From assembly GCA_028284155.1 (NCBI GenBank), contig JANQSF010000069.1:1-64000 (forward strand): a stretch of DNA of 64,000 nt, given 5' to 3'. This document shows, piece by piece, positions 5 to 16,969 of this stretch. Under the pieces are notes generated by a model. The model did not search any database. It was not told the origin of the DNA and worked only from the letters and a program-made list of their open reading frames with translations. How positions within the stretch are numbered: position 1 is the stretch's first letter; each line of letters begins with the position of its first letter. This stretch comes from Phycisphaeraceae bacterium (GTDB lineage: Bacteria > Planctomycetota > Phycisphaerae > Phycisphaerales > Phycisphaeraceae). The translations under genes and the position numbers were made by a program.

Positions 5-1792
5 TCAAACTACCTGGGATCGATCATGCTCGCCTGCGCCCTGCTGTGGTACCGAAGACTCAGGCGTCAGGGGAAAGTGCCTGATTTGAGATAGTTTCTT
101 ATACATCAGCGCTGCTTCAAGTCGAGCAAGATCATTACAGGGGTGTCCCGGACCACTGTGAACATAGTCGATAAAACACGGATCGCGGTCATCGCGAACG
201 AGAATGTTCATCAGGTGAACATCTCCGTGGACTACGGCACAGTCTTGAAGCGGCCGTACGATTTCCGCGGCGCGTGAAGTTAATCCTGGAATGTCAATGG
301 CGCGGCTGCCGGTATCTTCGATCGTCCATTGAATACCCTTGCCGGCTAGATCAGTTAACGTGGTTGCGATCCATGTGTACCCCGCACCATCGTCATCAGC
401 GGATTTTGTGTTGAGAGTAGCCAGCTTATCAGCGGCCCTTTCGATGGCCACGGTCAGGTCTTCTTCATTGGGTGCTTGTTCGCCCCATGAGCCTAGCTCA
501 GCATTCATTGCTTTTTCGAGTTGGGCATCTAGTGTAGGAGCAGGTGATCCGGGTACGCCCGGTGTATCGACCAAGGTAAAGATAATGGCGGCAGCGTCCC
601 CGTGATAGTGCAATTCGGGACAAGTCCGCCCGTCCCAGCCACTGGCATACTTGTAATACGTCTTCATCTCCTCCCGTAAACGTCCAGCGTCGTCAATCTT
701 CATGACGAAGCCAGAGCCACCATCATTAGGGCTCGCCAATAGCACCTTGGCATAAGAACGCCCCTGAACAAAGAACGAGGTGTGTAGCTGTTCAAGCTTC
801 AGGCCTTGGTCGAAGCGATTTCCTCTTACATGTTTGGTGGCTGCGATTCGGACAAGCAGGCCCTCTGAGGAACTGATCTCATGGGGGTGGAATCTAGTAC
901 TGGTTGAGGCATCAAGAAGCGTGGAGATTCCCTCGATGGACTGAATGTCGGTGGGAGAGAGGCGGCAACCGCTCCCTTGACAGAAGAGGGACGCGTCGAT
1001 GTCGGCATAACAGAGATCCCGGCGCATTTGATGTATTTGGGCCGCAACGTTCGCTTCTAGGCCATCGACATCTAGCCGGAGAAAGAGTACTGAAGATAGT
1101 TTCAGTAATCGAAGCATGATGGTCTCATGTTCCGATACTGCATACCGAGTCCACAATGAGGACGCGACGACGATGCCTGCGAGACCGGAACGGAGTATTG
1201 TTTCGAGGTCGCCGATGTTTTCTAATCGAAGTGGCGTTATACCTGCTCGCTTGAGGAGGTGGGTGTTAGAAGCGTGTTCTTGTTCCGTACCGAGAAGCAG
1301 CACAGCCCGTTGAGGCGCGCTGTTGTTCTCGTTGAGTCCCTCAATGGTCGAGGGCGATGAAGGGAGAACGGGTGTCGCCGGCACAGACTCCGGCCCTGTT
1401 GTGGTTGAAAGACTTGAATCAGACTGTCCGGGGTGTACCTTGGGACGAAGCCCCTCGGGCAAATGGGCCATGACGGCGTTCTTTGACGCTGGAAGAAGGT
1501 TCGCAGCATGCGCAGCGATTTCCTCGAAATCCGAATGGATTAATTGAAGGCTACCAAGGACGGCCTCGATTCGGCGTGCCCTTTCCCGGTCCGACAATGA
1601 GATCGCACCGTCGATTGCAGTCACTATGTCTGAAAGCTTCGGTCGTAGATCTGGCCCGTCCGTGATAAACGATTTCGCAAGGGCACGAACTGCAGATTCG
1701 AAGACTTCGACGGCGAGACTCGTCAGATCATCAAGATTCGGGCGTTGTGGGTCCATCGTGAGCATTGCCTTGGGTGGCAAGTAGTGGGCCAT
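5..1792 (-). CDS. APH-fold kinase fused to a receiver-like domain
   Basis: About 595 residues. The N-terminal ~100 residues are helical and unrecognised. A middle segment starting with the strand RAVLLLG has alternating strands and helices like a response-regulator receiver, but I see no convincing phosphoacceptor Asp. The last ~270 residues are an aminoglycoside-phosphotransferase/choline-kinase fold. A candidate ATP-binding Lys lies in FVMKID, the Brenner motif is HGDVHLMN and the metal-binding motif is FIDY. The C-lobe after FIDY is only about 50 residues, shorter than usual, so a late truncation is possible; the stop lies 5 bp inside the window edge. The start is uncertain. ATG at 1792 (AAAGGA just upstream) is preferred over GTG at 1825 and ATGs at 1765 and 1756. 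All overlap the end of the upstream ATPase gene, so the two are probably translationally coupled. Substrate is unknown; it could be a small molecule, nucleotide or protein. Confidence 0.75.
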   Translation of the reverse strand: MAHYLPPKAMLTMDPQRPNLDDLTSLAVEVFESAVRALAKSFITDGPDLRPKLSDIVTAIDGAISLSDRERARRIEAVLGSLQLIHSDFEEIAAHAANLLPASKNAVMAHLPEGLRPKVHPGQSDSSLSTTTGPESVPATPVLPSSPSTIEGLNENNSAPQRAVLLLGTEQEHASNTHLLKRAGITPLRLENIGDLETILRSGLAGIVVASSLWTRYAVSEHETIMLRLLKLSSVLFLRLDVDGLEANVAAQIHQMRRDLCYADIDASLFCQGSGCRLSPTDIQSIEGISTLLDASTSTRFHPHEISSSEGLLVRIAATKHVRGNRFDQGLKLEQLHTSFFVQGRSYAKVLLASPNDGGSGFVMKIDDAGRLREEMKTYYKYASGWDGRTCPELHYHGDAAAIIFTLVDTPGVPGSPAPTLDAQLEKAMNAELGSWGEQAPNEEDLTVAIERAADKLATLNTKSADDDGAGYTWIATTLTDLAGKGIQWTIEDTGSRAIDIPGLTSRAAEIVRPLQDCAVVHGDVHLMNILVRDDRDPCFIDYVHSGPGHPCNDLARLEAALMYKKLSQIRHFPLTPESSVPQQGAGEHDRSQVV

Positions 1793-3674
1793 ACTTCCTT
1801 TGACGCAATCTGAATGCTTCAGCACCGCCCTCTAGTATTGCGAGTATGGGCTCCTTGGCGGACTCAACATCGCCCTCGAGCGGTGCGGCTGCCCGGCTCG
1901 GCGATTTCATCGACATGACAACGATATGGTCAGCCTCACCGAGAACGGGGATATTGGCGTTGTGTGTGACAAAGACCAACTGTCGTTTTTGTTTAAGAGC
2001 GCTGATCTGTTTTATCAAGGTTTCATAGATGAACCTATTGTCGAGATCATCTTCTGGCTGATCAAACATCAGCGGGTAATCCGCCGGGCGTAGAATCAAA
2101 GGCAATAGTGCGGTAGCCATCTGTCCCTTAGACAACTGACTGAGAGGTTTCGGAACGCCGTCAACGAACATGGTTATCTCAAGCCAATCATCGAAGATCG
2201 CAGTTTCAACTTGGTAAAGCGAAGCATTATCAATCAGAAATGCGACGAGACGAGCCATCTGTCCCAAATCTCTACCCAGTACTTCGGCAAGACGATTCGA
2301 GTCTCCTGATTCGACAATGTCCACCAGATCACATGGGCGAACTCTTTCAGCTAAGTCTGCCGACACATCGTCTTGATTATGCAATCGAGAGCCACGGAGA
2401 AGCTGCCCCACAAGATCTTGATACGCCTTCGATCTTGTGCCTTGATGCAATGTGAGAAGAACAACGTTCCCAAAAGTGGCGTTGATCTGTTCGACCTGCT
2501 CGATGCGGAGTTGATATAGAGTGTCACTGATCAATTCAATGCGCTGGCGTAACTTCTGGCGTTGGGTGACAAGGGACTGGTGCTTGTCGAACAGTCCCGC
2601 AAGCTGAGTCTCAGCCGCTGTCAAGTGTTGTATTTGACGTTTAATTCCATCCTCTTGTTTCAGCGATTCAGTTACTTGCTCCTCTTTCTGAAGGAGTTCG
2701 TAGTATGGTTTCGATTGATTCTCAAAACGTGTCGCTAGGTCAGACAATAGAGAATCTGGATCGGGTTGGGCACCCACGATCATTGCGTCGCCCATGGATG
2801 CCAATGCGTCGGCAAACGAGCGAACTAGCTGGGCCAGAGACTGAGTCTCGAGTGTGTCGGTCGTTTCGAGTTCTTGTGCCGATTGAATGAAGCTGGGCGC
2901 TTCATCGATAAAAGGCTGCAACTCTGCGATGACTTCTTCACGTCTTGCAACAATTTGGCGCGCTCTTTGCAGAATTGCCTCTCGACGTTGAAACGCTTCC
3001 CGCTCCGTGCTCATCTCCTGCGAGAGCTCGGGACGTTCTTTCTGGATTTGCGCCAATTCCGCCCTATAGCCTTCAAGGTGCTTGACTTGTCCTTTGAGAT
3101 CCTCGATATCATTTCGAAGTTGCCGTATTTGTGGTCCTAGGGAGCTGAGTTCGTCCGCCAGTTGACGGCGCTCGCTCTTGAGTGCCTCGACTCGCTGCCG
3201 ATTAGGTTGGTCGATCAGGTCCAGTCGTTTTGATCCGTCTTCGGCGATTCTCTGTAGGTCCCCTTGAGAATAGATCTCCACGCAAGTCAATACGGAAGTA
3301 GGGTCCGCAAGCTCCTTAACACCATCCCGGAACACTCTCGGGGGTTCGTTGCCAGATCGTTCAACGCTCAATTCTGAACGCTGGCCTGCCTGATTGTCAT
3401 AAGCCTGAACCAGAGCTGCTCCGCCCTCCAGCGTCGCGCGGATCAATCCCTTGGATGAGGGGCCGTCTTGTGGCTGATCCTTGTTCGACGAATCCTGGAG
3501 CAAGAGCTCGACTCGAGAAGGATCGCAATTGAATGCGTACCGAATGGTCTCGACGATTGTTGATTTGCACGTCCCGCGCGCACCAATAATGCATGTAAGC
3601 TGGTTGTGAAAGCGAACCGGTGAATCCTCTAGGTATCCAGCTGAGACTTTCAGTTCCTGGATGTATAGAGCCAT
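1731..3674 (-). CDS. SMC/ABC-type ATPase with long coiled coil
   Basis: About 647 residues with the split ABC architecture of RecF/SMC-like ATPases. Walker A (GARGTCKS) is near residues 31-38. A Glu-, Gln- and Arg-rich coiled coil runs roughly from 150 to 400. The C-terminal part carries the signature-like LSKGQ, Walker B with LMFDQPEDDLDN, and an H-loop THNANIPVLGEAD. These C-terminal motifs resemble the AAA ATPases of TrlF-like and other phage-defence systems. Walker A is unusual: the Gly before the catalytic Lys is Cys, read from the TGC codon. ATG at 3674 is chosen because it immediately precedes the conserved ALYIQELKV strand; TTG at 3686 is the alternative. It overlaps the following kinase gene, which suggests a two-gene module. 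Activity as a nuclease regulator or DNA-end sensor is inference only. Confidence 0.8.
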   Translation of the reverse strand: MALYIQELKVSAGYLEDSPVRFHNQLTCIIGARGTCKSTIVETIRYAFNCDPSRVELLLQDSSNKDQPQDGPSSKGLIRATLEGGAALVQAYDNQAGQRSELSVERSGNEPPRVFRDGVKELADPTSVLTCVEIYSQGDLQRIAEDGSKRLDLIDQPNRQRVEALKSERRQLADELSSLGPQIRQLRNDIEDLKGQVKHLEGYRAELAQIQKERPELSQEMSTEREAFQRREAILQRARQIVARREEVIAELQPFIDEAPSFIQSAQELETTDTLETQSLAQLVRSFADALASMGDAMIVGAQPDPDSLLSDLATRFENQSKPYYELLQKEEQVTESLKQEDGIKRQIQHLTAAETQLAGLFDKHQSLVTQRQKLRQRIELISDTLYQLRIEQVEQINATFGNVVLLTLHQGTRSKAYQDLVGQLLRGSRLHNQDDVSADLAERVRPCDLVDIVESGDSNRLAEVLGRDLGQMARLVAFLIDNASLYQVETAIFDDWLEITMFVDGVPKPLSQLSKGQMATALLPLILRPADYPLMFDQPEDDLDNRFIYETLIKQISALKQKRQLVFVTHNANIPVLGEADHIVVMSMKSPSRAAAPLEGDVESAKEPILAILEGGAEAFRLRQRKYGPLLATQGNAHDGPTTPES

Positions 3675-3952
3675 GCGGGAGTCCAATTCCTATGTGGGAC
3701 GTTACACCGATACTATGTTCCATATCTGCACGCGAAAAGCCTCAAAATTGCCGCAATGGCGGCCGCGAATAGAACTCCCGCTGCAACCAGCCCTCGCGGC
3801 AACCCGATGCGCGAACGACAACGGCAAGTGAGTCGCGGACAGACGTGAAGACGGAGACAGAGAGTGTTGCCCAATCCATTTCACATGTTACCAACGTAAG
3901 ACCAAGGTGTTCAACTCGTCAATCTTCTGTTGGTAATCAGGCGCGCGTCACA

Positions 3953-5110
3953 CTATGCCGCAAATAGCCCAGCGCGTTGCAGCCAATTGAATCGTGGTCT
4001 GTACTTCAACACTTGTTTCCCCTTCGTGCAATCACGTCTGGAAGCAGAAATGCCCGTTGTCGGAGCGATTAACAGGCGTGGTGCCGCCACTTGACCGTCA
4101 CTCAACCAACTCGGCAAGACAGCCATTCCGTTCCGCTCGAAGTGAATCTCTGTTTGTCTACGAAGGTTCTCGGCGTGCCCCACAAACAACGGCGCCTCCG
4201 GCCCAAGAAAAGCGTAAAGTCCACAAACTCTGGGAATGGTGCGAACCGACACGGAATCAGTAGAGCCAAGGTCATCAAAATCACCGAACTCAATCCTCGG
4301 CGAGCCTGAGATCGACCGGCCCGCTTTGCGCAGCGTCAGTGCCGCCCAATGATAATCAAACGTGCTATAACCCGGCGCGAGACACTTGGCGATCTGATCG
4401 AACACTTCCCGTAGGCGCGGCTCACATAGGACCTTGTCAATCGAAACATCCCGCTGGTGTTCTTCCCACTCCCGCTGCTTCACAATCCGAGCAGCTATTT
4501 CGCTCGCGTATGCGAACTCATCAAGGCGCGACCGCTCAATTGAATATGACTTGGGCCGTTCGGCCGGGGGTAGCTTCTTGTTCTTACGCCCATAGAGAAG
4601 TGTCCACCGAAGCTCAAAAGCGCTCGCCTGGGCTCCCAATTCCCAGCATCGACGTAAAAACAGACTGTCGAACTCCGGGTCGGCAATGACGCGGTCTACA
4701 GACGCCCCGCCACGCGTATCCAGATACGCCCGCCCGGCGACATCCACCAGGGAGAGTAACCTTTCCTGGCTTGGAACAGGAAACTGCGCTGGCCCCTTAG
4801 ACACTGCTGACTCATCCTCGCTCGACGTCACGGGGCCAAAGAGGCAAGCATCGATTACCTCATGCTCCCCACTCACTTGTCGGTCACCAAACAGTGTTGG
4901 GGACGGCACACATCCGTCCAACCGATCATCCAGCTTGTCAAGAATCCGGGCCGGATCGCAAAGTTCATCTGGCACGTCATCAGAGTCATCCGAACTCGAG
5001 ATACAAGGCTTGACGTACCCGGCGTTGCACAAAGCATCGAATACTGTGGTTTCGGTAGCCTGCGGCAGCTCGATTGGGGTCGGTGTATCAGGCATGGTGG
5101 GGTTATTCAC
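3953..5110 (-). CDS. GIY-YIG-like domain protein, unknown role
   Basis: About 385 residues. The first ~90 are acidic and low in complexity. The middle has two similar helical blocks (around FELRWTLLYGRKNKKL and FDYHWAALTLRKAGR), which may be an internal duplication. The last ~90 residues (297-385) match the GIY-YIG pattern: GLYAF, then LFVG in place of YIG, NLRRQ with the conserved Arg, then a His, and a terminal RPRFNW like the conserved Asn region. The second Tyr is Phe, so catalytic competence is uncertain. GTG at 5110 has GAAGG upstream; ATG at 5095 is the alternative. It follows the ECF sigma gene by about 20 bp on the same strand and is probably co-transcribed with it. GIY-YIG domains occur in nucleases, and also in degenerate form as binding modules. 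Confidence 0.6.
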   Translation of the reverse strand: MNNPTMPDTPTPIELPQATETTVFDALCNAGYVKPCISSSDDSDDVPDELCDPARILDKLDDRLDGCVPSPTLFGDRQVSGEHEVIDACLFGPVTSSEDESAVSKGPAQFPVPSQERLLSLVDVAGRAYLDTRGGASVDRVIADPEFDSLFLRRCWELGAQASAFELRWTLLYGRKNKKLPPAERPKSYSIERSRLDEFAYASEIAARIVKQREWEEHQRDVSIDKVLCEPRLREVFDQIAKCLAPGYSTFDYHWAALTLRKAGRSISGSPRIEFGDFDDLGSTDSVSVRTIPRVCGLYAFLGPEAPLFVGHAENLRRQTEIHFERNGMAVLPSWLSDGQVAAPRLLIAPTTGISASRRDCTKGKQVLKYRPRFNWLQRAGLFAA

Positions 5111-5129: not shown

Positions 5130-5813
5130 TCATGCAACCTGGGCCGGGTCGCTTTGAACGTCGGCAAGCACTTTCTTGAAGGACCTGTAGCGGATCTGAC
5201 GGTAGTTGTCGTGAGAGACGCCATGCATCTCACAGAGTTCTTCGATCACATCGGCTGGAACATCGAACTCTTTTGTTTCCTTGTTGTACCAATCGAGTGA
5301 GGACACCAGAACGTGGCGGTCACGATCAGACAGTCGCGCCAGCGAGGTTGCCGCCCTGCACGCAACCTCCTTCCAATCAGGGACGCGTCCGTCGTCGAGC
5401 GAAACGCTGGAGGTGACAGGCGCTAGGTGACGCCGATGGTCTTCGTTGTGGCGCTCCGCCAGAACAGCCGACTCCTTTGCGTCGTCCTGGATGCGTTGGA
5501 GGCAGAGCCGGGTCACGATCTTACACAGCCACGGTCGAGCGCTACCACCCGCACGGTCGGCCGCATCGGCGTTGAATGTCTCCGCTCGGTCGTGAGCGCG
5601 AATGAACGCTTCGTGCACCGTGTCCGCAACGCCCTCGTCGCCGCCCAGCCGCCCCTTGAAGCGAAGGGCGCATTTGTAGACGGACGTCACGTGCCGCTTG
5701 TACAGCACGCTGAACGCGGCTCTTCGCTGGTCCGGGGGCTTCTTTCTCGCCCCAATGACGGCCAGCAACTGACCATCACTCGCCTGGTTCTTATCGGCCG
5801 TCATATCGGGCAT
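5130..5813 (-). CDS. ECF-type RNA polymerase sigma factor
   Basis: 227 residues, in the size range of ECF sigma factors. A region-2-like segment (FSVLYKRHVTSVYKCALRF, then VADTVHEAFIRAHDRA) is followed by a linker. A region-4-like helix-turn-helix segment follows (LARLSDRDRHVLVSSL, then GVSHDNYRQIRYRSFKKVL). It is transcribed divergently from the ubiquitin-like operon across 190 bp that contain a long inverted repeat. No anti-sigma gene is adjacent; the next gene downstream is the GIY-YIG-like protein. This placement suggests a dedicated regulator of the island, possibly of both arms. Family assignment rests on motif shape only, and the subgroup cannot be named. Confidence 0.8.
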   Translation of the reverse strand: MPDMTADKNQASDGQLLAVIGARKKPPDQRRAAFSVLYKRHVTSVYKCALRFKGRLGGDEGVADTVHEAFIRAHDRAETFNADAADRAGGSARPWLCKIVTRLCLQRIQDDAKESAVLAERHNEDHRRHLAPVTSSVSLDDGRVPDWKEVACRAATSLARLSDRDRHVLVSSLDWYNKETKEFDVPADVIEELCEMHGVSHDNYRQIRYRSFKKVLADVQSDPAQVA

Positions 5814-5869
5814 CGCGTAGCGGCTCCTGCTCGTCGCGCCAACGTCCTGTTCTACCCGTCCCCACTAGG

Positions 5870-5930
5870 TATACGCCCCACCGTGACAACTTCGCCACCG
5901 GTCCGGAATGGTGTCACGCTGGGGCGTACA
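5870..5930. promoter_or_regulatory. 19-bp inverted repeat between divergent operons
   Basis: The left arm TATACGCCCCACCGTGACA (5870-5888) and the right arm TGTCACGCTGGGGCGTACA (5912-5930) are complementary at 17 of 19 positions, with a 23-bp spacer. They lie between the ECF sigma gene (minus strand) and the Ubl gene (plus strand). Each arm places a GTGACA-like element facing the other, so the symmetric structure could give one promoter in each direction or form an operator. Function is inferred from position. Confidence 0.55.
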
Positions 5931-6003
5931 GGTTTGTGAATCGACAGCCCAGCGGGCATCGCCAAGCCCCCGGATCAAGAACTACTTCCAGAGGAACTGA
6001 CAA

Positions 6004-6252
6004 ATGGCCAGTTTCCGTGATTGTAAAGGGCACGGGCCCAAGTACTTCGTCAATATTGAAGGCAAGAAGCACCCCTGGAACAAGGACACTATCACGACCG
6101 AAGAAATCGCCGAGTTGGGTGGCTGGGATGTGGCCGTCGGCGTGATCGAAGTCGACCGCGACAATAACGAGCGGACACTGGCACCGGGCGAGGTCGTGCA
6201 ACTCAAGCCCGGGCACGGATTCGCGAAGAAGGTGAGATGGAAGAGGGGATGA
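6004..6252 (+). CDS. Ubiquitin-like modifier protein (bacterial Ubl)
   Basis: 82 residues, a single beta-grasp-like unit. It resembles the repeat unit of bacterial multiubiquitin-domain proteins: VNIEGKKHPWNKDTITTEEI, a GGWD turn, an IEVD strand, ERTLAPGEVVQLKPG and a terminal KKVRWKRG. The chain ends in Gly, as expected for a modifier activated by an E1 without prior trimming. The usual multi-repeat arrangement is reduced to one copy. ATG at 6004 is preceded by AGAGGA. The E2-like gene overlaps its end by 16 bp and the JAB and E1 genes follow in tight array, so it is the likely substrate of that machinery. Target proteins are unknown. Ubl identity is strong from sequence pattern plus context, but no structure search could be made. 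Confidence 0.85.
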   Translation: MASFRDCKGHGPKYFVNIEGKKHPWNKDTITTEEIAELGGWDVAVGVIEVDRDNNERTLAPGEVVQLKPGHGFAKKVRWKRG

Positions 6253-6644
6253 ATCGCAACGAACGCATCCAGCACGAGTTGGTGATGTTGCGCTCGCGAT
6301 TCCCGGGCCTCCACGTCCACGGCGACTGGGCCTGCATCCCCGGGTTCGCCTTGCCGGGGGGATGGGCTCCAAGCCCCATCAATGTCGTATTCCACATCGA
6401 CCCCGGCTACCCCGGCAAAGCTCCGTACGGAATCTATGTGCCCGTGGGACTCCGCCACAATGGCGAGAAGCCTCTGCGCTACAACGAACCGGCCAAGAAC
6501 AAGCCGCCTTTTGATGGCCAATGGGCAGTGCTCTCCTGGGCACCCGAAGACGGCCAATGGCAACCCAAGGACAACATTTCCGAGGGATCAAACCTGATGA
6601 ATTGGGCCCTGAGTTTTTCTGAGCGATTTCGTGGGGGGCGGTGA
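6237..6644 (+). CDS. E2-like protein (Prok-E2_E type)
   Basis: 135 residues resembling the bacterial E2 family often annotated Prok-E2_E. It has a HGDWACIPGFALPGGW block, then INVVFHIDPGYPGKAP (the E2-like beta-meander with Pro-rich turn), VGLRHNG, and a W-rich segment leading into NLMNWALSFSERF. The only Cys is early, in DWAC, and not in the canonical position after the beta-meander. Classical thioester transfer is therefore not evident. ATG at 6237 has GAAGGTGAG just upstream; ATG at 6249 is possible. It overlaps the Ubl gene by 16 bp and the JAB gene by 14 bp, which indicates coupled translation. The likely role is in Ubl transfer or as a scaffold; the chemistry is uncertain. Confidence 0.75.
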   Translation: MEEGMNRNERIQHELVMLRSRFPGLHVHGDWACIPGFALPGGWAPSPINVVFHIDPGYPGKAPYGIYVPVGLRHNGEKPLRYNEPAKNKPPFDGQWAVLSWAPEDGQWQPKDNISEGSNLMNWALSFSERFRGGR

Positions 6645-7167
6645 ATTGCAACCACCAGTAGACATCCGATTGGACGACCGCCTGTATGCCAGTCTGCTGC
6701 AACACCTGCTGCCGCCCGGCTCACCGTACGAAGAAGCGGCTTTTCTCTTCGCGGATGTACATGATGACAACACTTTCGTCGTTCGGGACTGGGCGCCGAT
6801 CGCCGCCGATGAGTTTCATCATCGGTCTCCTTACTATCTCGAATTGGCGGATGACACGCGTGCACGTGTCATCAAACGGGCACACGACCTGGGCGCCTCG
6901 CTCGTCGAGGTCCACTCCCATCCGTGCTACCACGCCGTGTTCTCAGAGTCCGACATTGCCGGCTTCCATGAGTTTGTCCCTCACGTGATGTGGCGACTCA
7001 AGAGCCGCCCGTATATGGCGATCGTGTTTAGCCCGGGCGCGTTCGACGGGCTTGTGTGGCTCGATGCCCCCGACCGGCCAGCCGCCCTCGGGCACATCGT
7101 TATTGGTGACTTGAAGCTTGCACCAACTGGCCTGAGTCTCGCACGTTGGGAGGTGCCGAGTGAGTGA
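6631..7167 (+). CDS. JAB/JAMM metallopeptidase, Ubl-specific isopeptidase candidate
   Basis: 178 residues with a clear JAMM zinc site: EVHSHP at residues 93-98 followed by SESD at 105-108, giving H95, H97, S105 and D108. The first half has the expected strands (EEAAFLFADV, VVRDWAPI). JAMM enzymes of this kind hydrolyse isopeptide bonds to ubiquitin-like proteins or trim their C-termini. Here the modifier already ends in Gly, so removal of conjugates is the more natural job. The GTG start at 6631 overlaps the E2-like gene; TTG at 6646 is an alternative. Its 3' end overlaps the E1 gene by 8 bp. Confidence 0.85.
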   Translation: MGGGELQPPVDIRLDDRLYASLLQHLLPPGSPYEEAAFLFADVHDDNTFVVRDWAPIAADEFHHRSPYYLELADDTRARVIKRAHDLGASLVEVHSHPCYHAVFSESDIAGFHEFVPHVMWRLKSRPYMAIVFSPGAFDGLVWLDAPDRPAALGHIVIGDLKLAPTGLSLARWEVPSE

Positions 7168-8023
7168 TGTTCGACACCATCGCAGTATCGAGCTCTTCGG
7201 ACCGGTAGGTCAAGACGCCTTGCGCCGCACCCGCGTTGCCGTCGTGGGCATAGGCGGCCTCGGGACTCACGTCGTTCAGCAACTCGCCTTCTTGGGGGTC
7301 GGTACCATTGCCGCCATGGACCACGAGGATCTCGACGAGACAAACCTTAACAGATATGTCGGGGCGCGACACGACGACCCCATCCCAGGGACACCGAAGG
7401 TCGATATCGCTGAACGCACCGTTCGTGGAATCGACGAAGGCATCACGGTAGTCAAGATTCGGGAGCCGCTCGTCAGTGAAAGGGCGTTTTCGGCTGTCAA
7501 GGCCAGCGATTGGGCATTCGGTTGCGTGGATACCGACGGCCCACGATTCATTCTGAACGAACTCTGCGCGGCGTATGGCATTAAGTACGTTGACCTCGCC
7601 ACCGACGTGGAGCCCGGCCCACCGCTCAAATACGGTGGCCGGGTCTTCGTCTCCGACAACGGCGACGGATGCCTGTCCTGTCTCCAGATGTTGGACATGA
7701 AACAAGTCAACTGGTATCTGGCTGGCGAAGGACAGCGGGAAGACCTAGCAAACATCTACGGAGTGTCGCGCGACCTCCTCGGCCGGTCCGGACCTTCGGT
7801 CGTGTCTATCAATGGTGTCGTCGCGTCTCTTGCGGTAACCGAGTTCATGGTCGGCTGCACTGGTCTGCGTTCGCCGCGACGGCACATGGTTTATGATGCG
7901 ACTGATAGCAAGGTGCGCATCAGCTTGGACCAGCCCGTTGAGGGCTGTTGGTATTGCAAGGTGATGCGCGGCACTGGGGTTAATGCAGATGTGGAACGAT
8001 ACTTGGCCACGAACGCATCGTGA
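7160..8023 (+). CDS. ThiF/MoeB-type E1-like activating enzyme
   Basis: 287 residues. The adenylation domain shows the Rossmann nucleotide loop GIGGLG (30-35), the DETNLNRY segment with the conserved Asn and Arg, and FGCVDTDGPRF. Two CxxC pairs (C171/C174 and C263/C266) form the zinc-binding pattern usual in ThiF/MoeB/HesA proteins. A Ser-rich SINGVVASLAVTEF helix follows the region where thioester-forming E1s carry their catalytic residue. It should adenylate the C-terminal Gly of the Ubl at 6004. The GTG start at 7160 is fixed by the 8-bp overlap with the JAB gene. It is the last gene of the operon; tRNA-derived and repeat sequence follows. Confidence 0.88.
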   Translation: MSDVRHHRSIELFGPVGQDALRRTRVAVVGIGGLGTHVVQQLAFLGVGTIAAMDHEDLDETNLNRYVGARHDDPIPGTPKVDIAERTVRGIDEGITVVKIREPLVSERAFSAVKASDWAFGCVDTDGPRFILNELCAAYGIKYVDLATDVEPGPPLKYGGRVFVSDNGDGCLSCLQMLDMKQVNWYLAGEGQREDLANIYGVSRDLLGRSGPSVVSINGVVASLAVTEFMVGCTGLRSPRRHMVYDATDSKVRISLDQPVEGCWYCKVMRGTGVNADVERYLATNAS

Positions 8024-8100: not shown

Positions 8101-8137
8101 ATAAATCACAACTATCTTATTTTCAGAAATCTAGGAA

Positions 8138-8179
8138 AGCGGGCGAAGGGACTCGAACCCTCAACATTCAGCTTGGAAG
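8138..8179 (-). tRNA. tRNA-Gly(TCC) 3'-half fragment, probable attachment-site scar
   Basis: Read on the minus strand, this has an anticodon loop CTTCCAA, a T-arm GAGGGTTCGAGTCCCTT and the acceptor strand CGCCCGC plus a discriminator T. The 5' half (acceptor GCGGGCG and D-arm) is absent upstream. It is therefore not a functional tRNA. The break near the anticodon loop is typical of sites where tRNA-targeting integrases recombine. Confidence 0.7.
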
Positions 8180-8260
8180 AAACGTACAGCGCTCCGGCCA
8201 ATTCTGGCCGTAAGTTGTTACTTCACAGGCGATCATAGCCACGACATAGCGATTCGCAAA

Positions 8261-8464: not shown

Positions 8465-8486
8465 TGACAGTTGCACACTGAGTGTG
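8465..8486 (+). promoter_or_regulatory. TTGACA element with adjoining inverted repeat, upstream of hen1
   Basis: TTGACA at 8465-8470 is followed closely by CACACTGAGTGTG (8474-8486), an inverted repeat with 6-bp arms around one base. No good -10 box lies at the standard spacing, so this is more likely an operator near the start of the Hen1 operon than a complete promoter. Confidence 0.3.
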
Positions 8487-8526
8487 GCGAGCGACAATAC
8501 CATTGCTATGGCCAAGGCCCGAACCG

Positions 8527-9939
8527 ATGCTGCTGACGATCACCAACAGCTCGCCCCAGGCGACCGATCTCGGTTACCTGCTTCACAAGCACCCCGACAA
8601 GGTGCAGGCTTTCAGTCTGTCCTACGGCAAAGCTCACGTTTTCTACCCCGAGTCCTCCTCTGACCGTTGCACGGCATGCCTGCTGCTCGACATTGATCCG
8701 GTGGGCCTTGTCCGCAATCGACGCGGTCCCTCCGGAGAAGGTCGAAGCCTGGACCAGTATGTCAACGACCGACCTTATGTCGCATCATCTTTCCTGAGCG
8801 TCGCTCTCGCCAAAGTCTACGGGTCGGCTCTGTCGGGTCGCTGCAACGACAAACCGCAACTGATCAGCACACCGCTTGATTTGACTGTCACGGTGGATGT
8901 TGTGCCTTGCCGCGGCGCGAACGATGACGGCCAGGTTATCCGCGAGCTATTCGAACCACTCGACTACACGGTCGAGACCGTCCATCACCCACTTGACGAG
9001 AAGTTCTTGCAGTGGGGTGAAGGGCCGTACTTCTCCGTCACGCTTCGAGCACGGAAGCCCCTGAGCGAGATGCTCACGCATCTGTATGTCCTGTTGCCCG
9101 TACTCGACAACGACAAGCACTACTGGGTCGATAAGGACGAGGTTGAGAAACTTCTCGCCCGCGGTGAGGGCTGGTTGCAAGGCCATCCGGCAAAGGAACT
9201 CATCACCAATCGGTACCTGCGGTACCAGCGTTCGCTGACCCGCGACGCCCTAGCTCGACTCACCACTGAGGAACAGGTGGACCCCGATGCAGACGCTGAA
9301 GCACATGACGAGCAGGAAGAAGCTATCGAAAGCCCATTGAGCTTGAACGACCAGCGCCATGCCGCGGTCGTGGCTGCTCTTAAGGCCAGCGGCGCCAAAC
9401 GTGTACTCGACTTGGGTTGCGCCCAAGGAAAGCTGCTTCGTCGACTCCTTGACGAGAGACAGTTTGAGCTGGTGGCTGGGATGGACGTGTCTCTGCGCGC
9501 TCTGGAACACGCCGAGCGTCGGCTTAAGCTGGACCGTCTGCCAGACCGCCAACGTCAACGCGTTCAGTTGCTTCACGGCTCACTGATGTATCGAGACCAG
9601 CGGCTTAATGGCTTCGATGCTGCGTGTCTGGTTGAAGTGATCGAACACCTCGACCCACCGCGTTTGGCCGCGATGGAGCGTGCAGTCTTCGAGTTCGCGA
9701 AGTCTCCGACGGTCGTCCTGACCACGCCAAACGTCGAGTACAACGTACGCTTCGAGACGCTGCCCGCAGGACAATACCGTCACCGGGACCACCGTTTCGA
9801 GTGGACACGCGAGCAGTTCCAGTCGTGGGCTACGGAGTTGGCGGAACGATTCGGGTACACCGTTCGTTTCCTTCCTGTCGGAGACAATGACGCCGAAGTC
9901 GGCAGCCCAACGCAGATGGGGGTTTTCGAGCATGCGTAA
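8527..9939 (+). CDS. hen1: Hen1 3'-terminal RNA ribose 2'-O-methyltransferase
   Basis: 470 residues, the usual length of bacterial Hen1. The N-terminal half matches the Hen1-specific domain: MLLTITNSS start, then DLGYLLHKHPDKVQ, RCTACLLLDIDPVGLVR and SLDQYVNDRPYVASSFLSVA. The C-terminal half is an SAM-dependent methyltransferase with VLDLGCAQGKLL and the metal-binding EVIEHLD plus the downstream HRDHRFEW histidines. Hen1 methylates the 2'-OH of the 3'-terminal nucleotide at the cleavage site before Pnkp seals the break, which blocks renewed cleavage by ribotoxins. ATG at 8527 is chosen because it begins the conserved MLLTI strand. The next gene overlaps its stop by 8 bp. Confidence 0.92.
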   Translation: MLLTITNSSPQATDLGYLLHKHPDKVQAFSLSYGKAHVFYPESSSDRCTACLLLDIDPVGLVRNRRGPSGEGRSLDQYVNDRPYVASSFLSVALAKVYGSALSGRCNDKPQLISTPLDLTVTVDVVPCRGANDDGQVIRELFEPLDYTVETVHHPLDEKFLQWGEGPYFSVTLRARKPLSEMLTHLYVLLPVLDNDKHYWVDKDEVEKLLARGEGWLQGHPAKELITNRYLRYQRSLTRDALARLTTEEQVDPDADAEAHDEQEEAIESPLSLNDQRHAAVVAALKASGAKRVLDLGCAQGKLLRRLLDERQFELVAGMDVSLRALEHAERRLKLDRLPDRQRQRVQLLHGSLMYRDQRLNGFDAACLVEVIEHLDPPRLAAMERAVFEFAKSPTVVLTTPNVEYNVRFETLPAGQYRHRDHRFEWTREQFQSWATELAERFGYTVRFLPVGDNDAEVGSPTQMGVFEHA

Positions 9940-11374
9940 GCCGAATGTCCCTACTGCTGCCGTCGCTCCGTATTCACTTCCCCTCGACGAACGTGAGTTC
10001 GAACAGGCTCTGTCCGTTGGCCACGGCCGTGCATGGTTGCACCTATCCCAACATGGCATTGGAACCGTCCGGGGAATCGTCAAAAACGCCCTCCTGCACA
10101 GTTTGGCCTACGACACGCAGTGCGAAGGTGATCGGAGCCAATGGATGATCGGGATGATCGATGAGGCCGGCGCTGGTCGCGACCTCTATCCTGAGTTCAT
10201 CGAGCATGCACATGACGCACCCGTAGATGATCACGACTTCTGGCACCTTTCTCAACGAGGCACACTCCTCGGAACTTTGGCATCGAGGGGCCTGGACGGG
10301 GCGAGAGCCGCTCTCGACCGCTTGTTTCACGAAGGCCGAAAACAGCACCCGAACGAACTCCTTGGCGCGCTCGACATCATCAAAGTCAATGGCGACAAAG
10401 GCCTTCTACAAGTGTGTGCAGTGTTGGGCAACGAGGCACACGAGAACAGTGATGACACAGTCGACGACTGGTTCCTGAACGACTTCGATGAAGATCGAGG
10501 GGACAGTGCTGCCGTCAAGGTGCTTCAAGCAGAGCGCCACCATAGTCAGGGTATCGACCGGTACCTATCGACTAGAGAAACCATGCTGGCGGCGAGACAA
10601 GCCGACAAGCAGGCCAAGACGCGGACGTCGCAACTCGACGAGACAACGCCCAAGATATCAGACTACGCCAAAGTACCACGAGCATTCCACAATCTCCCAG
10701 TAGAGAAGGTCATTGATTGGGTTCGCGATGCTCCCCAAATAGAGGGTCAGTTTCCCAGCAGCGTTGAAGGTCGCGGTTGGCTGCGGCGTTGGGGGATTAA
10801 AGCGAACGAGACGGCCTTGGAGGAGGTCTTGAGCACTCTCGACAAGACTGACTCTGCAATCGAACAACGCCGCTACTTGAGCATTTTTTCTGGGCGTCCG
10901 ATGCCCCAAGTCTCCGATCGGGTTGTTCAGCTTGCTGAATCCGGCGATGAACGAGTTCGATCTCGTGCATACGCGGCTCTAAAGAACGTATCAGACCCAC
11001 GGGTCCGAGCCGTAGGTTTGAGATCGCTCATCCCGGAACGAATCAAGAACGGGGCACTTGAACTGCTGCAGTCGAGTTACGCCCTCGGCGACCATGAGGC
11101 TATTGAAGCCGCGCTTATTGTGCCCGACGATGCGGATGATCTTCACTCTGTGGTTTTTGATCTTGCGGATGTGTGTGCCACGGCTAAACACCCAGAATGT
11201 CTTGCATTGATGCTGTTCGTCTACGAGTACTCCCCTTGTGGCAATTGCCGTGGAAAAGTGGTTGCAACCATGGCTGAACTTGGCGTCGCGCCAACTTGGC
11301 TTTCCGACGAAGGTCGATTTGACGCGATGGAAGACATTCGCGGTAGGTTCGGAGGGCCAAGACTTGAGGATTGA
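9932..11374 (+). CDS. Unrecognised HEAT-like protein between hen1 and pnkp
   Basis: 480 residues, mostly helical. The N-terminal half has no motif I recognise. It contains FEQALSVGHGRAWLHLSQHG and a DFWHLSQRGTLLGTLA segment with a repeated W-HLSQ theme. From about residue 330 there are HEAT-like helical pairs (DERVRSRAYAALKNVSDPRV, RVRAVGLRSLI), ending in a CGNCRGKVV segment. ATG at 9932 overlaps the hen1 stop by 8 bp, and its own stop lies inside the pnkp start region (11-bp overlap). It is therefore translated as part of one RNA-repair operon. HEAT-repeat proteins usually bind other proteins or nucleic acid. A role as adaptor, damaged-RNA sensor or regulator is inference. Confidence 0.75.
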   Translation: MRKPNVPTAAVAPYSLPLDEREFEQALSVGHGRAWLHLSQHGIGTVRGIVKNALLHSLAYDTQCEGDRSQWMIGMIDEAGAGRDLYPEFIEHAHDAPVDDHDFWHLSQRGTLLGTLASRGLDGARAALDRLFHEGRKQHPNELLGALDIIKVNGDKGLLQVCAVLGNEAHENSDDTVDDWFLNDFDEDRGDSAAVKVLQAERHHSQGIDRYLSTRETMLAARQADKQAKTRTSQLDETTPKISDYAKVPRAFHNLPVEKVIDWVRDAPQIEGQFPSSVEGRGWLRRWGIKANETALEEVLSTLDKTDSAIEQRRYLSIFSGRPMPQVSDRVVQLAESGDERVRSRAYAALKNVSDPRVRAVGLRSLIPERIKNGALELLQSSYALGDHEAIEAALIVPDDADDLHSVVFDLADVCATAKHPECLALMLFVYEYSPCGNCRGKVVATMAELGVAPTWLSDEGRFDAMEDIRGRFGGPRLED

Positions 11375-13937
11375 CCTTCCTGAACTCTCACTTGTCACAC
11401 TCATCGGAGCTACCGGCTCTGGGAAGTCATCCTTTGCGCGCAACCACTTTGGTCCGTTCGAAGTAGTGTCTTCTGACTTTTGCCGCGGTCTGGTCTCAAA
11501 CGACGAGAACGACCAGACGGTCTCCAATGAAGCGTTCGACCTGCTGCATTCGATCATCCATCAACGTCTCCGACTCGGCCGCCTGACGGTTGTGGATGCG
11601 ACTAACGTTCGCCCTGAAGACCGCAAACATCTGGTACGCATTGCCCGCGAACACCACGTGTTGCCGGTGGCCGTCGTCTTCGACATTCCCGAGAAGGTTT
11701 GTCACGAGCGCAACGCCAGCCGTCCGGACCGCGACTTTGGACCACACGTCATCCGCAATCAGCGGTCGGCCATGAAACGGAATCTGCGAGGTCTCAAACG
11801 GGAAGGCTTCCGACACATCTTTACGTTTAAGAGTGTCGAGGAGGTCGACGCGGCAACGACCGAGCGTCAGCCGCTCTGGAACAACAAGAAGGCGGTCACG
11901 GGTCCGTTCGACATCATCGGTGACGTACACGGTTGCTGCTCGGAACTGATCACCCTGCTCAACGCGTTGGGCTATCAGGTCACTGAGACAGATCGTGAAG
12001 ACGGGTTGAAGTTTCAGGTGACTCCACCCGATGGGCGAACAGCGGTTTTCGTCGGCGACCTCGTCGACCGCGGCCCTCGGGTCGCCGACACGTTGAAGCT
12101 GGTGATGGCGATGCACGCCGATGGCGTCGCCCACTGTGTTCCCGGCAATCATGATGTGAAGCTGCTCCGGAAGCTCCGAGGAAAGAACGTTCAGATCACC
12201 CATGGTCTCGACGTGACGCTTGCAGAACTGGAGAAGGAAGACGCGGACTTTAATGACGCTGTCGTACAGTTCATCGACGGTTTGGTGAGCCACTACGTTT
12301 ACGACAATGGTCGGCTTGTGGTTGCTCACGCCGGCCTGATACAAAGCATGCAAGGCCGTGGCTCCGGCAAGGTCCGGGAGTTCTGCCTCTACGGTGAGAC
12401 GACCGGTGAGACCGACGAGTTCGGGCTGCCGATTCGGTACAACTGGGCTGCTGAGTACAGGGGCTCGGCGATGGTCGTCTACGGGCACACGCCAGTGCCG
12501 GAACCCGAATGGCTCAACCACACCATCAACATCGACACCGGTTGTGTGTTTGGAGGCAAGTTGACCGCCCTTCGCTACCCCGAGAAGGAGTTGGTTAGCG
12601 TTGATGCCGAGGCGATGTACGCCGAACCGGCGAAGCCGTTCCTTGACGAAGACCAAAAACACGGCGTGCTCAGTGCCCAACACGCGGTCGATGATGTGCT
12701 TGATCTCACTGACGTCTTTGGCAAGCGGATCATCGACACCAGGCTTCAGAAGGCGGTGACGGTCCGGGAAGAAAACGCTGCTGCCGCTCTCGAAGTCATG
12801 AGCCGGTTCGCGGCCAACCCGAAATGGCTAATCTATCTGCCACCGACCATGTCACCCTGTGAAACGAGCGAGCGTCCGGAGTTTCTCGAACACCCCGAAG
12901 AAGCATTTACCTACTACCGTAATCAAGGCGTGCCGCGTGTCATTTGCGAGCAAAAGCATATGGGGTCGCGAGCCGTGGCAATTGTCTGCCGAAATGAGGA
13001 TGTCGCTCGCGAGCGGTTCGGCGTCGTCGGCGAGGGCATCGGCATTGTGTACACGCGTACAGGTCGCCGGTTCTTCGATGACGTCGAGTTGGAGCAAGCC
13101 TTGCTTCACGAAGTGCGGGCGGCTGCCGACACCTGCCGACTGTGGGATGACCTTGGTACGGATTGGATGTGTCTCGATTGCGAACTCATGCCGTGGTCGG
13201 CCAAGGCTCAAGAGTTATTGCGCCAGCAATACGCTGCTGTCGGGTCAGCGGGGCGCCATGCGCTCGCGGCGAGCGTCGCTGCATTGACTACCGCCCAGGC
13301 TCGCATGGGCGAGCCGGCCGCAATGTTGTTGGCCGACATGCAAACTCGCCAAGACAGCTTGAAGGCCTACACCACCGCCTATCAGCACTATTGCTGGCCC
13401 GTCGAATCCTTGAGTGACTTGAGGTTGGCCCCTTTTCACCTGCTTGCCACTGAAAAACAGGCGCATGTCGACAAGGACCATCGTTGGCATATGGCGTGGT
13501 GCCAGAAACTCGCCGAACACGGGAGCGACGTCGTCATGGGTACGGCCTGCCACGAAGTCGATGTCACCGATGAGTCAAGCCTCGCCGCGGGTATGGAGTG
13601 GTGGCTCACACTGACCGGTGAAGGTGGCGAAGGCATGGTCGTGAAGCCCTTGGACTTCATCGTCCGCGGTAAGCGGGGACTGTCGCAACCAGCGGTCAAG
13701 TGCCGCGGCCGCGAATACCTGCGCATCATCTACGGTCCCGAATACACCACGCCGGTACACCTTGACCGGCTCCGCGCACGAGGGCTTGGCCGCAAACGCG
13801 GGCTGGCGCTTCGCGAGTTTGCTCTTGGCATTGAAGCACTGGAGCGGTTCGTTCGACGGGAGCCCTTGCGGCGCGTGCACGAGTGCGTGTTTGGCGTCCT
13901 CGCCTTGGAGAGTGAGCCTGTTGACCCGAGGTTGTGA
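11364..13937 (+). CDS. pnkp: Polynucleotide kinase-phosphatase-ligase Pnkp (RNA repair)
   Basis: 857 residues with all three modules of bacterial Pnkp. The 5'-kinase has P-loop GATGSGKS at 15-22 and SSDFCRG just after. The metallophosphoesterase has IGDVHG near 185-190, VGDLVDRGP, PGNHD, AHAG and GHTP, and acts as 2',3'-phosphatase. The C-terminal ligase domain carries the nucleophile motif EQKHMGSR. Numbering matches the known clostridial enzyme closely. The start is TTG at 11364: GGAGGG at 11351-11356 lies 7 nt upstream and the protein then begins at the conserved strand before the P-loop. It heals and seals RNA ends, with full ligation known to need Hen1, the first gene of the operon. Confidence 0.95.
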   Translation: MRIDLPELSLVTLIGATGSGKSSFARNHFGPFEVVSSDFCRGLVSNDENDQTVSNEAFDLLHSIIHQRLRLGRLTVVDATNVRPEDRKHLVRIAREHHVLPVAVVFDIPEKVCHERNASRPDRDFGPHVIRNQRSAMKRNLRGLKREGFRHIFTFKSVEEVDAATTERQPLWNNKKAVTGPFDIIGDVHGCCSELITLLNALGYQVTETDREDGLKFQVTPPDGRTAVFVGDLVDRGPRVADTLKLVMAMHADGVAHCVPGNHDVKLLRKLRGKNVQITHGLDVTLAELEKEDADFNDAVVQFIDGLVSHYVYDNGRLVVAHAGLIQSMQGRGSGKVREFCLYGETTGETDEFGLPIRYNWAAEYRGSAMVVYGHTPVPEPEWLNHTINIDTGCVFGGKLTALRYPEKELVSVDAEAMYAEPAKPFLDEDQKHGVLSAQHAVDDVLDLTDVFGKRIIDTRLQKAVTVREENAAAALEVMSRFAANPKWLIYLPPTMSPCETSERPEFLEHPEEAFTYYRNQGVPRVICEQKHMGSRAVAIVCRNEDVARERFGVVGEGIGIVYTRTGRRFFDDVELEQALLHEVRAAADTCRLWDDLGTDWMCLDCELMPWSAKAQELLRQQYAAVGSAGRHALAASVAALTTAQARMGEPAAMLLADMQTRQDSLKAYTTAYQHYCWPVESLSDLRLAPFHLLATEKQAHVDKDHRWHMAWCQKLAEHGSDVVMGTACHEVDVTDESSLAAGMEWWLTLTGEGGEGMVVKPLDFIVRGKRGLSQPAVKCRGREYLRIIYGPEYTTPVHLDRLRARGLGRKRGLALREFALGIEALERFVRREPLRRVHECVFGVLALESEPVDPRL

Positions 13938-16439: not shown

Positions 16440-16969
16440 GCTTCTCTGTTCCTGACGCGGACAGTGTTCGAACTCACGGCCCTAGTCCACGTCCGGCAAT
16501 TCCATCACGGCGTTGACCGTAGAGTCGCTTCGCCCTCATCGTTTCGCCCAACGGACGTGTTTCACCACGTGGTGAAACACGCCACTTCAGTGAAACCAAC
16601 TCTGAGATCCCGGGACAGTGGCATTCGCCTGCCCCCACCAGACGGCGAGAATCGTACGTCAAGCCGTCACTTCAAATGACTTGCAGTGGCATCCGGCGGG
16701 TTGAGAAAAAACCGCCGGGGGCCATCACGGGAATCTGGGGGCTGATGGTGAAGGCCTCGCAGAGGATTGGGGATTGCCGATGCGAATGCCTGTGTGAGCC
16801 CCTCCGATTCGGGACCGATCCGGCAGATGGGGGTCTGGGGCCGGCATCTATATAAGTGGGTTGGGTGATGTGTGCCGTTGTCGTCCGCCCTCGTCGGGGC
16901 CATGGGCCTGCGGCCTCATCGGGTGAGCCCCGACGACGACGGCCGAAAACGGCAGGTAACCCGTCCGTG
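16440..16969. other. Gene-free stretch with a long palindrome
   Basis: 530 bp between two convergent units. Apart from the 26-bp palindrome near its start I see only short frames with no protein-like composition. It is probably the edge of the accessory region. Confidence 0.5.
16556..16581. repeat. 26-bp perfect palindrome
   Basis: Both 13-nt halves are exactly complementary; the left half is CGTGTTTCACCAC. There is no loop, so as DNA it fits a dimeric-protein operator or recombinase site better than a terminator, and no T-run follows. It lies 117 bp after the large hypothetical gene. Confidence 0.6.

What the first reader, a model, noticed from the sequence alone, without database searches (positions are those of the whole stretch)
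5130..8023. Ubiquitin-like conjugation operon divergent from its own ECF sigma factor
Single-unit Ubl, E2-like, JAMM peptidase and ThiF/E1-like genes overlap end to end, a full modifier-conjugation-removal set. Related bacterial operons are known from comparative genomics, and some act against phage. What I have not seen described is the head-to-head ECF sigma factor and a GIY-YIG-like gene on the other side of a shared regulatory region. That suggests inducible conjugation under a dedicated sigma factor.
Basis: partly seen in the sequence, partly recalled or inferred. Interest (0 to 1): 0.78.

Follow-up and report, generated by a model that had tools for sequence, protein, structure and literature searches.

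The report
Ubiquitin-like operon with sigma-factor switch
A bacterium, probably a planctomycete, carries a complete ubiquitin-like protein-tagging operon of the known 'Bub' kind facing a sigma factor that probably switches it on through a matching pair of DNA signals, and related genomes keep similar sigma factors, usually with a protein-cutting enzyme, beside such immune-type operons.

Summary
Four overlapping genes (6004-8023 +) encode a single Ubl, an E2-like protein, a JAMM peptidase with an intact motif and an E1. They form a Bub operon: Ubl, E2 and E1 match solved Citrobacter BubA, BubB and BubCD best. The E2 has Ser where other E2s have the catalytic Cys. The head-to-head sigma gene is real. 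The 'GIY-YIG' gene is a degraded GIY-YIG relative (Arg>Gln, Glu>Lys).

The sigma association recurs. Of 20 other Bub loci in the phylum, four have a Pfam-confirmed sigma gene, a small gene and an M78/IrrE peptidase; four more have that layout with a weak or unrecognised first gene. M78 lies at 12/20 Bub loci against 0/34 controls. GIY-YIG was found beside Bub only here.

The intergenic region holds two outward copies of TGTCACG-N6-CGTA. Such a divergent pair also lies between sigma and bub in two other genomes (one a variant), and one copy precedes a type II CBASS operon. A sigma-based controller of such operons is not described in the papers I could read; the main Bub papers were not available. 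Mechanism is inferred.

The parts
6004..6252 (+). Single-domain ubiquitin-like modifier (BubA-type), C-terminal Gly82
   Evidence: Multi_ubiq 26.9 bits; beta-grasp model, best matches BubA and multi-ubiquitin proteins; Gly82 invariant in 11 homologues
6249..6644 (+). E2-like protein (BubB-type), Ser96 at the catalytic Cys position
   Evidence: Model pLDDT 90 matches BubB, TM 0.70; profile E 1.5e-24 to BubB; Ser in 13 of 14 homologues, Cys in one
6631..7167 (+). JAMM/JAB peptidase (BubC-type); start may be TTG 6643
   Evidence: Prok-JAB 30.5 bits; E, HSH and SxxD motif residues intact in six homologues
7160..8023 (+). ThiF/E1-type adenylating enzyme (BubD-type), two CxxC zinc pairs
   Evidence: ThiF 117 bits; best solved relative Citrobacter BubCD, E 3e-17
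5130..5813 (-). ECF-type sigma factor, head-to-head with the operon
   Evidence: Sigma70_r2 32.1 bits; region 4 not detected by Pfam in this copy; homologues in L065, L080, L084, L078
3953..5095 (-). Protein with two helical repeats and a degraded GIY-YIG domain; putative sigma partner
   Evidence: Homologue L033 hits GIY-YIG 30.6 bits; catalytic Arg>Gln, Glu>Lys, YIG>FVG
5870..5888 (-). TGTCACGGTGGGGCGTATA element pointing to the sigma gene
   Evidence: Inverted repeat; only two matches in 64 kb, 0.03 expected
5912..5930 (+). TGTCACGCTGGGGCGTACA element pointing to the bub operon
   Evidence: Inverted repeat; same divergent pair in L065 and, as a variant, L133

Best explanation
The locus is a Bub operon, with BubC and BubD as separate genes, controlled by an ECF-type sigma factor encoded head-to-head with it. 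The E1 adenylates the Ubl at its C-terminal Gly; the Ubl passes to the E2, probably on Ser96 instead of a Cys, and on to a target; the JAMM peptidase removes it. The sigma factor drives its own gene and the operon from two outward copies of TGTCACG-N6-CGTA in the shared 190-bp region. A partner encoded after sigma holds it in check: in most relatives a small protein that an M78/IrrE-like peptidase would destroy under stress, by analogy with CapH+CapP; here a protein with a degraded GIY-YIG domain. Shown by sequence or model: gene identities, Bub relationship, intact JAMM, Ser at the Cys position, recurrence of sigma and M78 beside Bub, and the DNA element. Inferred: the chemistry, sigma acting on the element, the inhibitor role, stress induction and any immune function.
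For: Bub identity. Ser at the E2 active site. Sigma plus small gene plus M78 beside Bub: Pfam-confirmed sigma in L059, L065, L066, L133. M78 at 7 of 13 Bub loci against 0 of 34 control loci, Fisher 2.7e-5, and 12 of 20 with a second sample. Element; pair between sigma and bub in L065 and, as TGTAACG-N6-CGCA, in L133; none of 2000 shuffles gives both copies in any of the three. An exact copy lies about 110 bp before the type II CBASS operon of L080, whose following sigma gene is a homologue; one-mismatch copies 33-44 bp before the sigma genes of L078, L080 and L084. Only three copies in the whole genome, two of them here.
Against: The spacing between TGTCACG and CGTA (6 bp) is about 10 bp shorter than in ECF promoters such as ECF41 (n16), so the element could be an operator. 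It is absent at loci with more distant sigma genes (L059, L060, L061, L064, L132). Region 4 of the window sigma is not recognised by Pfam. L084, L078, L079 and L141 have related sigma genes without a Ubl operon. GIY-YIG beside Bub is a single case.
Confidence: 0.62

Rival explanations
1. The Bub operon is real, but sigma and the GIY-YIG protein are a self-contained two-gene module that merely lies next to it, and the operon has its own promoter.
For: Sigma-like plus GIY-YIG-like tandem pairs occur without a Ubl operon in L030, L032 and L034. ECF genes are common: 3 of 18 random loci hold one. Related sigma modules also stand alone (L084, L141).
Against: Matching outward elements point at both gene sets here, in L065 and in L133; an element also precedes the CBASS operon beside the L080 module. 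Head-to-head sigma and bub recurs in L065 and L133.
Confidence: 0.2
2. The TGTCACG-N6-CGTA element is an operator for a DNA-binding repressor or for the sigma partner, not a sigma promoter; control is by de-repression as with CapH+CapP.
For: Short spacing (for the usual one); ACG-N6-CGT core is a dyad; several Bub loci in the same phylum use HTH plus M78 (L043, L135, L136, L138), and plasmid CBASS and Bub loci do too.
Against: No HTH repressor gene was recognised at the window, L065, L080 or L133 module; sigma is the only family common to the loci with the element. Both half-sites resemble ECF half-sites.
Confidence: 0.15
3. The four genes serve sulfur transfer or a cofactor pathway rather than protein conjugation.
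For: The E1 also matches ThiF and MoeB, and JAB peptidases occur in sulfur-carrier operons (PMC1779556).
Against: An E2-fold protein matching BubB is present; the Ubl matches BubA and multi-ubiquitin proteins before ThiS or TtuB; no biosynthesis genes adjoin.
Confidence: 0.03

Closest known systems
Bub operons (bacterial ubiquitination-like), e.g. Citrobacter BubA, BubB, BubCD (PDB 9ea4, 9eae, 9ea8; Gong et al. 2025 and Ye et al. 2026, cited in PMC13373217)
   Same: Ubl, E2, JAMM, E1 in the same order; E2 and Ubl models and profiles match BubB and BubA; Ser at the E2 active-site column as in BubB
   Different: One Ubl domain instead of several; JAMM and E1 are separate genes; controller is an ECF sigma factor, not CapW, CapH+CapP or CapK+CapS
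CapH+CapP controllers (HTH repressor plus IrrE-like peptidase; PMC13373217)
   Same: In relatives of this locus a peptidase of the M78 family lies at the same place beside Bub and CBASS operons
   Different: A sigma gene and a small gene stand where the HTH repressor would be; in the window itself there is no peptidase but a degraded GIY-YIG protein
ECF41 sigma factors (PMC3426412)
   Same: Half-sites TGTCAC and CGTM; sites before the sigma gene and an adjacent target gene
   Different: Spacer of 6 instead of 16 bp; no C-terminal ECF41 extension was looked for; different target genes
GIY-YIG nucleases linked to DNA methyltransferases (L028, L031, L033 here)
   Same: Same domain layout by alignment
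   Different: Window copy has lost catalytic Arg and Glu and sits behind a sigma gene

Membership tests
Bub operon | Adjacent Ubl, E2-like, JAMM and E1-like genes | tested here: met
Bub operon | E2 of the BubB type | tested here: met
   Best structural match BubB, TM 0.70; profile E 1.5e-24
Bub operon | Ubl of the BubA/multi-ubiquitin type | tested here: met
   one domain only
Bub operon | JAMM and E1 of the BubCD type | tested here: met
   E1 best hit BubCD E 3e-17; JAMM weak, E 0.046, but only BubCD
Bub operon | Protein conjugation by the published Bub chemistry | not testable with these tools
   Papers not held; needs biochemistry
Bil (ISG15-like) system | E2 and E1 closest to Bil proteins, Cys as E2 nucleophile (Cys from general knowledge) | tested here: not met
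   Best matches are Bub; Ser in the Cys column
ECF sigma factor | Sigma region 2 | tested here: met
   32.1 bits, cut-off 24
ECF sigma factor | Sigma region 4 | tested here: inconclusive
   No Pfam match in the window copy; sub-threshold in homologues L065, L084; aligned region present
ECF sigma factor | Promoter with -35 and -10 blocks at usual spacing | tested here: not met
   TGTCACG-N6-CGTA, 6 bp between blocks against n16 for ECF41
CapH+CapP controller | HTH repressor plus M78/IrrE-like peptidase | tested here: not met
   Neither is in the window next to the operon (no HExxH in the GIY-YIG protein)
GIY-YIG nuclease | GIY-YIG fold by homology | tested here: met
   Homologue L033 above cut-off, alignment
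GIY-YIG nuclease | Catalytic Arg and Glu | tested here: not met
   Gln and Lys in the window copy

The most novel reading that the evidence does not exclude
A new class of controller for Bub and CBASS operons in planctomycete-type bacteria: an ECF sigma factor silenced by a small partner that an IrrE-like peptidase destroys under stress, reading promoters about one helical turn shorter than usual. In the window a degraded GIY-YIG nuclease has taken the place of small partner and peptidase.
Probability: 0.35. Interest if true: 0.8.

Novelty: new variant of a known kind. Interest (0 to 1): 0.62.

Why it matters
Bub operons resemble eukaryotic ubiquitination, but what triggers them and whether they act against phage is open (PMC13373217). 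[quoted passage not shown] A sigma factor with its own DNA element, found at Bub operons and a type II CBASS operon, would be a positive switch of another kind, and the element gives a direct way to look for genes switched on together with Bub. Ser in place of the E2 Cys, and no conserved E1 Cys apart from C122 and the zinc pairs, would also make these proteins a test case for conjugation that does not use the usual thioesters.

Tried and rejected
Plain sigma adjacency as evidence: rejected, ECF genes also lie in 3 of 18 random loci. GIY-YIG as a conserved partner of Bub: searched in 300 order and 264 phylum genomes; no homologue whose surroundings were read lies beside Bub (the four distant phylum hits were not read in context, but their genomes are not among those with a Bub E1 hit). 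Homology of the N-terminus of the GIY-YIG protein to the small protein of L065 and L080 (VPDELCDPARILD against LPKELRDPEMILN): 5.3 bits, 3 of 2000 shuffles with one model and 72 of 2000 with another; not claimed. First genes of L060 and L132 as sigma: not supported by Pfam or hhalign. E1 relatives in viral contigs: none. Sigma on plasmids: no match. The papers on Bub chemistry (PMC12885553, PMC12145246) are not held.
Full report
WHAT IS THERE. The four genes are real and overlap end to end: Ubl 6004-6252, E2 6249-6644, JAMM 6631 (or 6643) to 7167, E1 7160-8023, all on +. Pfam places the Ubl (Multi_ubiq, 26.9 bits, cut-off 24.5), JAMM (Prok-JAB, 30.5, cut-off 25) and E1 (ThiF, 117 bits); the E2 is below cut-off. 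On the other strand lie a sigma gene (5130-5813, Sigma70_r2, 32.1 bits) and a 380-aa gene (3953-5095) without a Pfam match. The window lies in a 7.2-Mb genome of 161 contigs.

WHICH SYSTEM. The E1's best solved relative is Citrobacter BubCD (E 3e-17); the JAMM's only hits, weak, are also BubCD. The E2 model (pLDDT 90) matches BubB first (TM 0.70) and canonical E2s next; a 12-member profile finds BubB at E 1.5e-24. The Ubl model matches Citrobacter BubA and other multi-ubiquitin proteins, and its profile finds four such structures at E 1e-11 or better. This is a Bub operon. JAMM and E1 are separate genes in the window, L008, L059, L060, L061, L069, L132 and L133 and fused in most other Bub loci fetched.

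ACTIVE SITES. The JAMM motif is intact in six homologues. In the E2 the column of the catalytic Cys holds Ser in 13 of 14 homologues and Cys in L067. Ser96 directly follows the strand before the active-site loop in the model, and BubB has Ser there too. In the E1 the only Cys in all 11 sequences is C122 in FGCxD; the other conserved Cys form two CxxC pairs that most fused forms lack. Transfer through an ester on Ser96 is inference. Gly82 of the Ubl is invariant, terminal here, and followed by two residues in L060.

THE GIY-YIG GENE. Homologues occur in 16 other genomes of the order; one in L033 hits GIY-YIG at 30.6 bits. Some are next to or fused with DNA adenine methyltransferases (L028, L031) and keep the catalytic Glu, as L033 does. 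In the window the Arg and Glu positions hold Gln and Lys, and YIG reads FVG; the three copies that follow a sigma-like gene (L030, L032, L034) have also lost the Glu. The sigma-linked copies therefore look like degraded nucleases in another role. None was found beside another Bub operon.

DOES THE SIGMA ASSOCIATION RECUR. Yes, with a different partner. L065 and L133 have sigma, a 123-aa gene and an M78/IrrE-like peptidase in one direction, head-to-head with the Bub genes. L059 has these three genes upstream on the same strand, L066 downstream on the other strand. L061 and L064 have the layout with only a weak sigma match, L060 and L132 with a first gene that neither Pfam nor hhalign recognises. 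Four more loci have an HTH gene with an M78-type protein, the CapH+CapP layout (L043, L135, L136, L138; the HTH of L043 is read from its sequence only). M78 lies at 7 of 13 Bub loci against 0 of 34 control loci (Fisher 2.7e-5) and at 12 of 20 when seven more readable loci are added. The M78 profile was trained on members from Bub loci, which may favour this contrast. All eleven peptidases of such sigma or sigma-like modules have HExxH. An Agrobacterium plasmid has a gene with sigma region 4, a small gene and an M78-UvrD fusion upstream of its Bub genes, so the layout is not confined to the phylum.

CLOSEST SIGMA HOMOLOGUES. Four of 391 other genomes in the phylum sample hold a homologue at E 1e-13 or better. 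One is L065. One, in L080, is followed by a small gene and M78 and sits directly after a type II CBASS operon (cyclase-like gene, E2-E1, JAMM, SAVED protein; the cyclase call is from sequence reading). The other two (L078, L079), and L084 found by profile, have no Ubl operon beside them.

THE DNA ELEMENT. The 190-bp shared region holds an inverted repeat, TGTCACGSTGGGGCGTAYA, one copy pointing to each gene set. Allowing three mismatches these are the only matches in 64 kb, 0.03 expected. L065, AT-rich and distant, has TGTCACG-N6-CGTA in both directions between sigma and bub. With the pattern fixed from these two, L080 gave an exact copy about 110 bp before its CBASS operon, and one-mismatch copies lie 33-44 bp before the sigma genes of L078, L080 and L084. 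L133 has an inverted repeat with TGTAACG-N6-CGCA in both arms. With the pattern relaxed at two positions, none of 2000 dinucleotide shuffles of the window, L065 or L133 region holds both copies; relaxing it was done after seeing L133. In the whole genome TGTCACG-N6-CGTA occurs three times, two of them here. The element was not found at L059, L060, L061, L064, L132 or L141, whose sigma or sigma-like genes are more distant.

READING. Sigma is the one family common to the loci that have the element; TGTCAC and CGTA resemble ECF half-sites (ECF41: TGTCACA-n16-CGTC); and copies stand before sigma's own gene. An autoregulated sigma that also drives the operon is the best reading. The 6-bp spacing does not fit usual ECF geometry and stays unexplained; an operator is the main rival. 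CapP is activated by ssDNA and cleaves the repressor CapH (PMC13373217); by analogy the M78 peptidase may remove a sigma inhibitor. How the GIY-YIG protein would replace it is open.

NOVELTY. [quoted passage not shown] that paper does not contain the term ECF. Searches of the held library found no sigma controller of Bub or CBASS, but the main Bub papers are not held. I file it as a new variant of a known kind: the conjugation set is a known kind, the controller looks new.

Noticed in passing
window 8132-8180: 3' half of a tRNA (anticodon loop reads like Gly UCC, antisense) about 120 bp after the E1 stop. Near-identical 45-48-bp copies lie at G000:C107:44380 and 21296, and an 82% copy at 16689: a possible scar of tRNA-targeting integration.
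   Followed up: partly
window 8482-9939 and 11238-13937, +: Hen1-type RNA 3'-end methyltransferase (TIGR04074, 701 bits), then an unknown HEAT-like gene and a gene that reads like a Pnkp RNA-repair enzyme (not scanned).
   Followed up: no
window 5-3686, -: TCAD9 plus phosphotransferase protein (50.9 bits, cut-off 40) and a TrlF/Ppl-like ATPase lacking the N-terminal part of the family model (283 bits, cut-off 350; padloc Ppl 79 bits). Many plasmid Bub operons also carry a phosphotransferase gene.
   Followed up: no
L030 2507-4191, L032 8414-10098, L034 7733-9423: Tandem pairs of a sigma-like gene and a degraded GIY-YIG gene, overlapping by one base or so, with no Ubl operon beside them.
   Followed up: partly
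L080 7021-13809, -: Type II CBASS operon followed by sigma, small gene and M78, with the window's DNA element before the first gene.
   Followed up: yes
L085 3568-6966, +: M78 peptidase domain fused to a UvrD-type helicase just upstream of a Bub operon on an Agrobacterium plasmid.
   Followed up: no
L084 5641-9829: Sigma, small gene and M78 module head-to-head with two genes of repetitive SPFH-like proteins instead of a Ubl operon (SPFH read from sequence only).
   Followed up: no
L069 6423-7463, +: Ubl and E2 fused in one protein on a Candidatus Tenderia plasmid, with separate JAMM and E1 genes.
   Followed up: no
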